Shown: positions 32,901 to 59,900 of the stretch, in pieces
Layout of the letters: each line of letters opens with the position of its first letter
Numbering within the stretch: the first letter of the stretch is position 1
Assembly (NCBI RefSeq): GCF_964275005.1
Contig: NC_092685.1
Coordinates: forward strand, 16,114,203-16,178,202
Direction of reading: 5' to 3'
Length of the DNA: 64,000 nt
DNA from: Diadema setosum
Lineage: Eukaryota > Echinodermata > Echinoidea > Diadematoida > Diadematidae
The notes under the pieces: model-generated
The model's input: only the letters and a program-made list of their open reading frames with translations
Told to the model about the DNA's origin: nothing
Databases searched by the model: none
Made by a program: the position numbers and the translations under genes

Positions 32901-35900
32901 TCCTCCAGTACAGTGAAACCCCGTTATAACGAGTTCGGTTATAACGAGGAACCGCTTATAACGAGGTGATCGCGTCGGTCCTGTTTTCCTTTGCGTGTAA
33001 ACCTATGGCAGAATGAATCGGTTATAACGAGTTCGGTTATAACGAGATTCCGGTTATAACGAGGACAATTTCGGTGCATCATGATAAAGAAAAACATAAG
33101 CAATTTGATCGGATATAACGAGGTTCCATTTCTTGACTAAATTGCTGCTTTCAAACACGCGACAAACGAAACCCTGAAAACTGAAATCACGCTATCCACG
33201 TCTTTTTCCGTTTTGCAGAGAACCGTTCCTTCCATGTTTTCTTCTAAATCACGCGATAAGACACAGGAATGTCTTCCGATGTTCCTACTAAATCATTAAA
33301 CATAATCATTCGAATTTCTTTTCCGCGAGATAGGCGTGCGTGATATTAGGGCAGACCACACCGCAACGAGAAATAAAAAAGATAACGCATTCAAAAACTT
33401 TTCATGTAGCGACACTTGTGGCCAAAAATGGACAATTGGAATGCGTGTGCAACTCATTATATCCTTTCCATTTTTAGTTCCGACTTCCAGTTCTTTTGCT
33501 GCTTAGCAAATATGAGTGTGGATGATTAAAGCCGAAATAATTAATGAAATCATCGCGATCCCGTCGGGTGACAGAAGCGTAAAAATAGTTGAATAACGCA
33601 TGTTAACCTCCTTAATCGGTGTTCACAAAAAGAAACGAACGCATTTATAAATTTGAATAGATCTGGATTTGTTCATTATCATTAACAAATGATAATTTAA
33701 ATATGAGTGTGTATGATTAAAGCCGAAATAATTAATGAAATCATCGCGATCTCGCCGGGTGACAGTAGCGTAAAAATAGTTGAATAACGCATATTAACCT
33801 ACTTAATCGGTGTTCGGAAAAAGAAACAAACGCATTTAACAGTTCAAGGATGTACAAAACGCGAAGAGATTTTCGAAAGAAAGTAAAGAACGCATTTTTA
33901 ATCCCGTCGGACGCAACGATCATACATTGTATAAAATTACAGCCGAAATGATTCATGAAATTATCGAATTCCCGCTGGGCTCCAACAGCGTAAAATACCT
34001 CTCAAGTTAACGGTAAATAACGCATGTATGTTACTCTGAAATTATCGCGATCTCGCCAGGTGACAGTAGCGTAAAAAATAGTTGAATAAGCATGTTAACC
34101 TAAATCAGAAAAAGAAACAAACGTATTTATTAGTTTGAATAGATCTGGGTTTGTTCATTATCACAATTTTAACACTGCATTTCACAATGAAGATTTTTCT
34201 TTCTTTCAGAATGGTCTATGAGGTACAGATTTGCGTATTAAAAACGGATCACAACGTAACCTTCCACATTCAATCCTGTCGCATATTTTTCAAGAACGGA
34301 TGTACAAAACGCGAAGAAATTTTCGGAAGAAAATAAAGAACGCATTTTTAATCCCTTCGAGCGCAAATATCATAAGATTATATTGTACAAGATTACAGCC
34401 GAAATGATTCATGAAATCATCGCATTCCCGCTGGGCACCAACAGCGTAAAAATACCTCGCAAGTTATGGTAAACAACGCCTGTATTTTACTCTATTTGCG
34501 CTGGTGTTAGGAAAAATTAACAAACAAGAATTACAATAAAGAATTATCTCATTTCAACATCTACTTTTTCGTCTAATTCACAAATAATTTCCCTTTATTA
34601 TCTCAATAATAATGATCCATAATTGTGTAATAACAACGCAAAGGATGGGTATATTCCGATGTCGTGCTTATGTTTTTCTTTGTTTTTGATGCGTACGGTT
34701 ATAACGAGGTACCGGTTATAACGAGGTAATATCGCCGGTCCCAAGGACCTCGTTATAACGGGGTTTCACTGTATCAGCATTACCAAACAAAAAGGCTGGC
34801 ACTTTACTCACAAATATCAAACCTGTCGTTCCTTATACAACAAATCTCAGCAATTTGAAACTTAGAACTTGATGTTCTTACTTGGCAATCCAGATTTCTT
34901 TAAAGCACAAACCTCTATAAACATAAATTCATTAACATACGCCAAATTTATGAAAATGCAGAATAACATAATTCTAAAATCCTTTGCAATGATATATACA
35001 ACACTGGTTATCAGATCTACTGTCCGACCTCACTCATCTGGTCACACTGGGAACAGCTGGTATCTGGATAAATGATTTGGCCAGATAAGAGAGATATGCT
35101 AAACTAGAAATGTCGCTACAGCGACTGGTGTATGCCTCCGCCATAACGCATGGTTCTCCTAATAGGTCTATAGTACAATGTCTTGACAATGTGTGATGAA
35201 AGTTTCACACAATTGGCAAAATATTAAAATGACAGGTTTGCCACAAATGTGCTGAATGTTCACTTTCCTAGAACTAGGTTTAATTGGATGACTGATTAAA
35301 ACATCAGAGTGCAGGTATTTGGGGGAACTGATGATTTTTACTTGACTTTTGACCCTTTTATAAGTTTATGCATTGAGTAATTTTCAAGGTATTGAGAAAA
35401 AGTATAATTTCAGTATCAAATGGTAAAATAGTATTATCTAAACCTGGCCTTTGACCTTTGACCGCACAGTTCCAAAGAGAATCACTGTTAGGTAGAACAT
35501 GCATAAATATGTAAGTTTCATGATAATACCTTGAGTTACTTTTGAGATATGGATGAAGAAGTGCAATTTAGCACGTTCACTTGACCTTTGACCTTTTGAC
35601 CTTTGACCTTTTGGCAAGAAACTTCCCACAGAATATATATTGGGTTATACATGCATACATCAAGTTTTAAAAAAAATCCTTCAGGCATTGCATAAATATA
35701 AGGAAAGCAGTGATATTTTGAGGAGTTGACCTTGACCTTTGACCCATGACCCCCAACTTCCCTAGATAATCACTGCCCATCGGTACATGCATAATAAGTT
35801 CCAAAAAGATACCTTGAACCATTTGCGAGATATGGAGAAAAACATGAAATTTCAACCTTTTTTTCACAAAATAACCTGTGGGGCAATTCCGCAGTTAGGT

Positions 35901-56900: not shown

Positions 56901-59900
56901 CTTTTCTTTTCTTTCTTTCTTTTTTTACTGGTCATGTCGGACTGGTAAGTTGTGGATTTCCTGAAAAGTTACCGGTCCAACAGTGACTTTTACCGGTCTT
57001 TGACCGTCGGACCGGCGCCAGTGTGCAGCCCTGCTGACTGCTGTGCTGACTGGTCGAACTCATACATAGTTCACTATTTCAGAGTCAGGGGAGTGGTTAG
57101 CTCCATGACGTACCTGACACTCTGATCATCACTGCCGGTAGCAAACATTGGTTTCTTGGGGTGGACAGCGAGTGACCAGAGCTCGCCTTCTGCATGGCCC
57201 TGGACCAGAACCTTGGGCCTGTCCCTCTCCCGAATGAATAGCTCCAGGATTTCACTGTCCTGTGTACCAACCAGGATGTGTTCTGCACGCCAATTCACAC
57301 TCCTAATTGAAAGACCTGAACAAACAACAATAATTTTATGGACATCAGCATGATAAAAACCCAGTGCACGAAGAGAAAAAGATAAAATGGTTACATGACA
57401 AATGTACAGTAGATTTTGATTTTCCTCTTATTCGTAACTATAAAAAGGGCAGAATATCTATCATAAAATCCACAATTCTTATGAAGTCAACAACTTTGTA
57501 GGACTCTTGGTTTTTAATCACCAGATAAAAAGGTCCTTCAAGTGTTTTTATTCCATTTGACTGCAATTCTAACACTAGACAAGAACACATAAAGAATCCC
57601 ATATGAGAATATATAATATCTCTGTCATAACACAAGACTATTGTGGTGTTATTTGCGGATACACACACTGCACACATAAACTGAAATCATGTATCACAAA
57701 TGGCTATATAAATGAGAATTATCTATAAAACGAACAGAAGTGGTCAAGTACAGATATGCAATATGTACAATCCACCCACACCTTTTAGCTTGGAGAGGAC
57801 GTGAAGATGTCTCTTTACAGAGTTAATGATTGCAAAACAATTTGTTCCTTTGAGCATGTATACACACGATGAATAATGTTTACCCTCCAATTCAAGTCAC
57901 TGCCGGTACAAAGTCAACTACAGTAAATTTGTTCAGACATTGTGCATCCCACGCCAACGATTAAAGGGTACCACTGGGCAACGACTTTGCTTCTGCTTCT
58001 TGACAGATACATCACCCATAAGCATGGATATTTCACAACTATTTTCATCTTTAAAATTCCTACTGACCCCACATAAGGACACAATTTTTGCAATCTTTTG
58101 CTAAGTTGATGCTCTGCAACAATGCATCACTCAATGGCATCGTTGTAACATAGAGCAATACATTACTGGCTCCTGCACGTACCCAGTTGCAACTACCGCT
58201 CACACATGCATGATTGCATAGCTAGTACCTACCTACTGCACATGCATATGGGTGCATGTGGGCGATACTTTGCTATCATCAATACAGAGGACATTGGGCA
58301 ATGCACATACGCATATCATTAAAATGAACAAATATACAAGAGTAATCTATATCCCTAAAGAATTTCATAAATCCAATTATTTCTAATTTTTCTCTTCACA
58401 TAGATAGCCATGCCATAGATATCCCATTGGCGTATGTTTTTAAAGTGAAACCAGATGAAAAAAGTCTTCCTTCGTTCAGCTTTCCCCTTTAATAACAACC
58501 GCACTCGCAAATCACCATGTGCAAAAGACCTCAGATCATGAAGTCTGTAACTGACTATAGCTCAACATCACCTCACTTCAAGTATGTAATCCATCTAATG
58601 TATCTAGTAACTACATCTATCTTCTTTCCCTGACTAGTAGGAGAACAGATACTAGCAACAGGATGTCATTGGTGCAAACCTGGGTATCCCTGGTTGGTTT
58701 TGTGCAAGTCAATCTTTGTGATGTGTCGGAAGTCCGTGTCCCACAAGCATATACATCCATCTTTTCCTCCAGTGGCAAAACCCTGGTCAGCAGCATCCAT
58801 GGTGAAGATGCTTCCCTGTAGGAAATCCAGAATTACAGCATTCAATTTTACACTTACTTTTCTCACTCATGCATGAGCATTGAAACAGTTATATGAAGCA
58901 TATTCTACACAATCTGAACAGTTTAAACTTGGGTATGGCAATACATTCTGCGAAAATGTGATGTAAGGAATTAACAATCATTACTGTATTCTGAACTTTG
59001 TTAAATAACAACATTCTGCAAGCAATGTGTATCAATAAGTTTTATTATGAGCTAACCTTTATGACAACATTTTGTATTTACACATCACCCTATACAATGT
59101 ATCATGAAGGAGACGTTAGAATCAATTAAGATGGAGAAAGATATCTTGGCATAAATGTTAATAGTGTGAACAACCAGTTGTCAGTAATCTCCTGTTTTAC
59201 AAGAAATAATCAGAAAAGAAACACTCCATGTTCCCTCACCCTATGGGCATCCTGAATAACTCGCTGCAGATTGACCCCGCTCCATACATAGATGTCGCCG
59301 CTGAGCGTTCCAGTGTACGTGATGTCGTCCGCCGAGCCAAAACCCAGGCAGAGCATGGTCTGGATCTCCCCAACCTTGCCAAAGATCCCCTTCTTGGCAG
59401 TCAATGCATTCCCACACAGCGTCCAGAACTTGATGTGCTTCATGCCACAGCTGACCAGTGCACCTTCTTTGTGCGGGCTGAACTGGCAATCAAATATCTG
59501 CACTCCGACAAAATCATACAGTATCAAAAGAAAATAAAAGACACATATGCACATAACTTCATAGGCATGCAAAGAGTAAGCAGCATCACAGGGCTTTTGA
59601 CACAAGACACTTCAAGACAAAATACTTCCCAGGTCTGAAACAGCAACACAAACTAGTAGGCTAAGAATATTCCATACTTCAGACTTTACTGTTGGAGGTA
59701 GCTCTGTGTGAATAAGACAAGACTGTGATACTGTATTCCACATCCTCTTACCCCCTCCCTCTCTTATAATTAATCTCAAGAAGAATTCCAGATGCATTGA
59801 TGAAAGCACCTTGTGGGCAAAAGTGGAGTAATTTCATGCATAATTAATGTCACAGGTCTAACAAAAATTCATTTACAAATGTCAGTGCTATCAGGGTGGT

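What the first reader, a model, noticed from the sequence alone, without database searches (positions are those of the whole stretch)
32911..57033. One ~190-bp core repeat shared by two transposons with unrelated ends
The middle of the TA-flanked pogo-like element (for example 34294-34440) and the units of the array inside the CAGGG-ended hAT-like element are the same sequence in opposite orientation. Shared blocks in order include ATGTAC-AA-GCGAAGA, AAAATAAAGAACGCATTTT, GATTACAGCCGAA, ATTCATGAAATCATCGCA and TCCCGCTG. One has about five diverged units, the other about 13. Two DNA-transposon families from different superfamilies with a common tandem core suggest repeated capture of a satellite-like unit, or a satellite spread by transposons. 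I know of no description of this particular unit.
Basis: partly seen in the sequence, partly recalled or inferred. Interest (0 to 1): 0.75.

Follow-up and report, generated by a model that had tools for sequence, protein, structure and literature searches.

The report
Same repeat core in two transposons
Two kinds of jumping DNA with unrelated ends in this animal genome carry the same block of tandem repeats inside them, which suggests that the inside of a transposon can pass between families that use different ends.

Summary
Element P (32911-34771; TA duplication, CAGTGAAACCCC ends) and element H (53379-57033; CAGGGCTGCACACT ends) share a core in opposite orientation (score 178; best of 200 shuffles 63). 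Both are repeated families. The 100 exact core places listed (of 3543) form 69 clusters: 36 lie beside a P end, 13 beside an H end, none beside both, 20 beside neither.

Two corrections. First, the shared piece is more than a 190-bp unit: it is a compound module with two kinds of unit and the array's edges. P and H units form two separate clades, which points to one ancestral sharing, not repeated capture. The longest listed cluster spans 3.4 kb, so a free satellite source is not supported there. Second, H duplicates 7 bp in 12 of 15 copies and 8 bp in one, which fits the P superfamily better than hAT. Neither family's transposase was identified.

Core length varies in steps of about 190 bp in both families. 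The transfer route (nested insertion or template switching) is inferred. Satellite-like arrays inside transposons are known; the same compound array in two TIR-transposon types is a new variant.

The parts
32911..34771 (-). Element P: non-autonomous pogo/Tigger-like transposon, 1861 bp, TA duplication, TIR CAGTGAAACCCCGTTATAACGAG with subterminal GGTTATAACGAG repeats
   Evidence: 4 of 4 copies in which both TIRs were matched have TA on both sides; 436 places of the 3' end within 3 mismatches, reversed control 0
33508..34568 (-). Shared core in P, read on the minus strand: left edge (B-type + tail), A unit, right edge + B, then a second diverged copy of the same set
34212..34418 (-). P unit 1 (A type), best match to the H unit
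   Evidence: (62 bits)
33847..33961 (-). Second P unit recognised by the H-unit profile (A type, truncated)
   Evidence: 37 bits
34053..34343 (-). P counterpart of the right array edge and following B segment of H
   Evidence: score 162, best of 200 shuffles 67; B part alone 101 against 60
53379..57033 (+). Element H: non-autonomous CAGGG-ended transposon, 3655 bp; 6-bp duplication CTGACT here, 7 bp in most copies seen
53643..53779 (+). Left edge of the H core (B segment + unit tail)
53780..56348 (+). Array of 13 full A units and one partial unit, about 190 bp each
56349..56523 (+). Right edge of the H core (ACCATTCTGA edge + B segment + tail remnant)

Best explanation
P and H are two families of non-autonomous cut-and-paste transposons with unrelated ends. 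A compound repeat module (B segment, unit tail, one or more A units, a distinctive right edge, B segment) came to lie inside both through one old sharing event. Since then each family has been moved through its own ends, presumably by its own transposase, while the module has been carried along and has gained and lost whole units by unequal exchange or slippage. The likeliest route of transfer is insertion of one element into the other followed by loss of the inner ends, or template switching during repair of an excision gap. Shown: homology including the array edges, two clades of units, separate end types, ladders of copy length. Inferred: that it was a single event, its route and its direction, and the transposases.
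For: Unit homology far above shuffles. The right edge and the B segment beyond the array are shared (162 against shuffle maximum 67; B alone 101 against 60; 200 shuffles each). The left edge is shared with an older H-like copy (95 against 50). The outer parts are not shared: in 4 comparisons, two strands each, every score lies below the maximum of 100 shuffles. The tree splits all P units from all H units (54 units of 3 H and 4 P copies). End tabulation, clusters typed by the three varying letters of the motif: 48 P-type, 35 with a P end, 13 with neither, 0 with an H end; 19 H-type, 12 with an H end, 7 with neither, 0 with a P end; 2 mixed, one with each. Length ladders: P cores 793, about 990 (4), about 1182 (21), about 1382 (2) in 28 copies; H arrays 2196 to 3910 in 19 copies; most of 84 paired H copies cluster near 3440, 3650, 3835, 4030, 4200 and 4590 bp. 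L010 shows an H copy (3468 bp, both ends exact) inside a P core, so the two families do nest.
Against: No chimera with one P and one H end was seen among what was fetched, so the transfer intermediate is missing. Against the window copy of H itself the left edge is weak (59 against shuffle maximum 51). One outer comparison (P 3' part against H left part) reaches 50, above the 95% point of its shuffles (45) though below their maximum (71). 20 of 69 clusters have neither exact end. L105 is a diverged lineage of the core without P or H ends in its 901 bases, which leaves room for a third source. Only the 100 best-matching places of 3543 were tabulated. The tree has no outgroup and no printed support.
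Confidence: 0.66

Rival explanations
1. A third element or an old satellite with the compound B-A-edge-B structure was the source, and P and H each captured a piece of it independently.
For: L105 is a diverged lineage with features of both. P carries the compound twice, as a tandem would (71.6% over 507 columns).
Against: No cluster longer than 3.4 kb among the exact matches listed. All 30 fetched H-unit loci lie in H elements and all 30 fetched P-core loci lie next to the P 3' end, though these were the best matches and so biased towards young copies.
Confidence: 0.23
2. The core is kept because it does something for the element (binding sites for a transposase or a host protein), and selection explains why both families hold it.
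For: Positions where P agrees with the H consensus are slightly better conserved among H units (0.911 against 0.847 outside CpG-type sites, permutation p 0.0135; all sites p 0.049). Galileo, a P-superfamily element, has transposase binding sites in its repeats (PMC3688188, passages seen).
Against: The effect is weak and related units are not independent. Three pieces folded no better than shuffles (z 0.26, -1.33, 0.75), no Rfam match over P, no site like the CENP-B box (motif recalled) within one mismatch in P or H. Two different transposases would have to use one core.
Confidence: 0.07
3. Chance or convergence in low-complexity tandem DNA.
For: Both cores are repetitive and look AT-rich by eye.
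Against: Shuffle and other-window controls; reversed-motif control 0 against 3543 hits.
Confidence: 0.01

Closest known systems
Cg_HINE / Pearl non-autonomous Helentrons of bivalves (PMC7492417, passages seen; PMC5139131, passages and discussion section read)
   Same: Dispersed non-autonomous elements with a central array of satellite-like units (about 160 bp in Pearl), modules combined between elements.
   Different: Those are Helentrons, which lack TIRs and such target duplications (recalled). PMC7492417 reports related flanks with unrelated repeats (its group 2); here unrelated TIR ends hold related repeats.
Tetris and its TIR-220 repeats, Drosophila virilis (PMC4079207, passages seen)
   Same: DNA transposon with internal tandem units of about 220 bp.
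   Different: There the TIRs are shared with another element, DAIBAM, and the repeats lie in the TIRs; here the core is shared and the ends differ. Tetris repeats also form kb-size satellite arrays; none longer than 3.4 kb was seen here in the listed matches.
MER6 MITE with the V domain of SINEs (PMC6887750, abstract and outline seen)
   Same: A sequence module found in two unrelated kinds of transposable element, one of them a Tc1/mariner MITE.
   Different: A single domain shared by a SINE and a mariner MITE, not a compound tandem array in two TIR transposons.
Galileo, P superfamily (PMC4168063, passages seen; PMC3688188, passages seen)
   Same: 7-bp target duplications with a minority of 8 bp, as in H.
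   Different: Galileo has long TIRs with internal repeats and target consensus GTANTAC; H targets look like NNTWWNN.

Membership tests
pogo/Tigger (Tc1/mariner), for P | TA target duplication | tested here: met
   4 of 4 copies in which both TIRs were matched have TA on each side
pogo/Tigger (Tc1/mariner), for P | CAGTG-type TIR with GTTATAACGAG repeats (likeness to Tigger recalled) | tested here: inconclusive
   Ends seen and counted; compared with no reference library
pogo/Tigger (Tc1/mariner), for P | Autonomous partner with a DDE_1 (PF03184) transposase and the same ends | not tested
   Search asked four times, never answered
hAT, for H | 8-bp target duplication (recalled) | tested here: not met
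   15 copies with both ends seen: 12 exactly 7 bp, 1 of 8 bp, 1 of 6 bp (window), 1 none
hAT, for H | hAT transposase (PF05699) with the same ends | not tested
   Search did not complete
P superfamily, for H | 7- or 8-bp target duplication | tested here: met
   13 of 15 copies; 7 or 8 bp in Galileo per PMC4168063
P superfamily, for H | P-element transposase (PF12017) inside an element with H ends | tested here: inconclusive
   22 PF12017 matches in the genome; 9 lie on contigs 1-9 and none is within 225 kb of a listed exact H end.
Free-standing satellite DNA | Long arrays independent of transposon ends | tested here: inconclusive
   Longest of 69 exact-match clusters spans 3449 bp, but only 100 of 3543 places were listed, and assemblies can drop satellites
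Helitron/Helentron | No TIR and no target duplication (recalled) | tested here: not met
   Both families have TIRs and duplications

The most novel reading that the evidence does not exclude
The module is an exchangeable inner cassette that moves between transposon superfamilies and helps whatever element holds it, for example by binding a host factor or shielding the element from silencing. Families with other ends should then hold it too.
Probability: 0.08. Interest if true: 0.75.

Novelty: new variant of a known kind. Interest (0 to 1): 0.42.

Why it matters
Non-autonomous transposons are often thought to inherit their insides from an autonomous parent. Here two families with different ends and different duplication lengths hold one compound array, edges included. 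That gives a countable and datable case of inner sequence passing between cut-and-paste transposon types, and a natural comparison of how the same array evolves in two vehicles. It also warns repeat annotators that classification by inner sequence would merge the two.

Tried and rejected
Structured RNA or folded DNA in the core: no Rfam match over P (H was not searched), three pieces fold no better than shuffles. Site like the CENP-B box (motif recalled): none within one mismatch in P or H. Constraint on the shared blocks: weak, p 0.0135 and 0.049, listed only under a rival. Third host family: L091, picked from the motif list as a possible new family, is an H copy. L109+L108 looked at first like a third end type, but the foreign flank ends like a piggyBac MITE (TTAA, CCCTAACAAGG; likeness recalled) at a TTAA in an older H-like copy. 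L106 is an H-array fragment, L107 a P fragment, L105 a diverged core. P ends without a nearby exact core (24 of 61) were not read as core-less elements, since at least three of them carry a core with mismatches. H as P superfamily through its transposase: no link found. Host species: not identified; of two proteins found for a window gene, the close one is from Strongylocentrotus purpuratus, 50% identity, so an echinoderm or hemichordate is inference.

Paper searches for an earlier description of this unit or of one array in two TIR types: (open-licence papers only); searches were about P-superfamily duplications. I saw nothing describing this unit in the listings or in the passages read; most listed papers were not opened. 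Passages of PMC12628747 and PMC11136912 were seen and add no such case.

Full report
The finding concerns two transposons in a stretch whose open frames read like an EML-type gene (by eye) in a 912.7-Mb animal assembly. I call them P (32911-34771) and H (53379-57033).

What is there. P is 1861 bp, starts with CAGTGAAACCCC, ends with its complement and lies between TA dinucleotides. H is 3655 bp, starts with CAGGGCTGCACACT, ends with its complement and lies between two CTGACT. H holds an array of 13 full units of about 190 bp and one partial unit. The core of P, read on the minus strand, aligns to the H unit with score 178. The best of 200 dinucleotide shuffles scores 63, the best other window stretch scanned 41, and the plus strand 26.

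The shared piece is larger than the unit. P on the minus strand matches the right end of the H array and continues into the segment beyond it (score 162; best of 200 shuffles 67). The segment beyond the array alone scores 101 against 60. The left edge of P matches the left edge of an older H-like copy at C1:262200-263800 (95 against 50 in 300 shuffles); against the window copy of H the left edge is weak (59 against 51). A second kind of unit, with the same head and tail but another middle (B), occurs in P, and its middle recurs at both edges of H. P holds the set twice in tandem, 71.6% alike over 507 columns. Beyond the core, 4 comparisons of the outer parts (100 shuffles each) stay below the shuffle maximum; one, P 3' part against H left part, reaches 50 where the 95% point is 45.

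Both are families. In each of three searches 40 candidates were scored, of 1399 (P core), 1688 (H unit) and 831 (H left end). All 30 fetched H-end loci carry the array, all 30 fetched H-unit loci run into H flanks, and all 30 fetched P-core loci have the P 3' end next to the core. These are best matches, so they favour young copies. Pattern counts: core motif 3543, P 3' end 436 and H left end 492 (up to 3 mismatches), H right end 272 (up to 2); reversed controls 0 each.

Ends beside each core. The 100 exact core places listed (of 3543) form 69 clusters on contigs 1-4. Clusters were typed by the three varying letters of the motif. P-type: 48, of which 35 have a P end, 13 neither, 0 an H end. 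H-type: 19, of which 12 have an H end, 7 neither, 0 a P end. Mixed: 2, one with each end. The P ends used were those with at most one mismatch (61 places), the H ends those with none (43). I read five of the 'neither' clusters: L091 is an H copy, L106 an H-array fragment, L108/L109 an older H-like copy with another element at its left, L105 a diverged core with features of both, and L107 a P fragment that the letters had typed as H. The longest cluster spans 3449 bp. L010, where an H copy sits in a P core and both ends are therefore near, has no exact motif place in the list.

History. In a tree of 54 units from 3 H copies and 4 P copies, all P units and all H units fall on two sides of one branch; no support values were printed and there is no outgroup. 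In the right half of the array, units at the same place in different H copies pair with each other, so that part was in place before the copies spread. Units of the window H copy are 80% alike on average (71% at least); P unit 1 is 67-73% like them. Core length steps by about one unit in both families: P 793, about 990 (4), about 1182 (21), about 1382 (2) in 28 copies; H arrays from 2196 to 3910 bp in 19 copies, the longest of which includes a foreign stretch. Of 99 exact H left ends on contigs 1-9 (of 100 listed; the last row was left out because the right-end list stops before it), 84 pair with an exact right end. Most lengths cluster near 3440, 3650, 3835, 4030, 4200 and 4590 bp; the range is 3082 to 7332, and the 13 over 4.8 kb were not looked into.

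What H is. Of 15 copies with both ends seen, 12 have a 7-bp duplication, one 8 bp, one 6 bp (the window copy) and one none. The target is like NNTWWNN (32 left flanks). Canonical hAT duplicates 8 bp (recalled). Galileo, of the P superfamily, has 7 or 8 bp (PMC4168063, passages). So P superfamily is the better guess, but unproven: the genome has 22 PF12017 matches, six of them in open frames of 735-925 aa, and none of the 9 on contigs 1-9 lies within 225 kb of a listed exact H end. The hAT and DDE_1 searches did not complete.

Mechanism. I take the core to be a passenger. It entered both families through one old event and then changed in unit number within each. Nested insertion with loss of the inner ends, or template switching during gap repair, would do it. 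L010 shows an H copy inside a P core (H length 3468 bp), so the families do nest, but I saw no chimera. A third source remains possible because of L105. I found no sign that the core is a known structured RNA (P only), a stable single-strand fold (three pieces) or a CENP-B-box carrier, and only a weak trace of shared constraint.

Place among known things. Dispersed elements with central satellite-like arrays are known in oysters (PMC7492417, PMC5139131) and flies (PMC4079207), and a module shared by a SINE and a mariner MITE is known (PMC6887750); what I saw of each is given under Closest known systems. The same compound array, with its edges, in two TIR families with different duplications is a variant that I did not find described in searches. 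Verdict: real, tidy, moderately surprising, mechanism inferred.

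Noticed in passing
L010 (C4:8348312-8351542) and C4:8345903-8349370: A complete H copy (3468 bp, both H ends exact) lies inside the core of a P copy.
   Followed up: partly
L109/L108 (C1:262200-263800): An element with TTAA and CCCTAACAAGG ends, like a piggyBac MITE (recalled), abuts the left edge of an older H-like core at a TTAA.
   Followed up: partly
L105 (C4:7134750-7135650), about 57-500: A diverged core with features of both P and H and neither end within 901 bases; possibly a third lineage.
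   Followed up: partly
C2:17980436-17982617: Two P 3' ends 1.3 kb apart on one strand, each with core hits: adjacent or tandem P copies.
   Followed up: no
13 H-ended stretches of 4.8-7.3 kb, for example C8:12746404-12753735 and C1:32626919-32634047: Longer than the unit ladder; they may hold other insertions or coding copies.
   Followed up: no
window 7824-8447 (-): 207-aa open frame that reads like the end of a LINE reverse-transcriptase protein (by eye).
   Followed up: no
window 42500-42811, 43654-43906, 60910-61253: Three two-copy tandem duplications of 161, 132 and 180 bp.
   Followed up: no
window 35440-35760: Stretch rich in GACCTTTGACC-like repeats.
   Followed up: no
G000 contigs C2, C3, C6, C10, C18: Six of 22 P-element-type transposase matches (PF12017) lie in open frames of 735-925 aa, so possibly young elements.
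   Followed up: no
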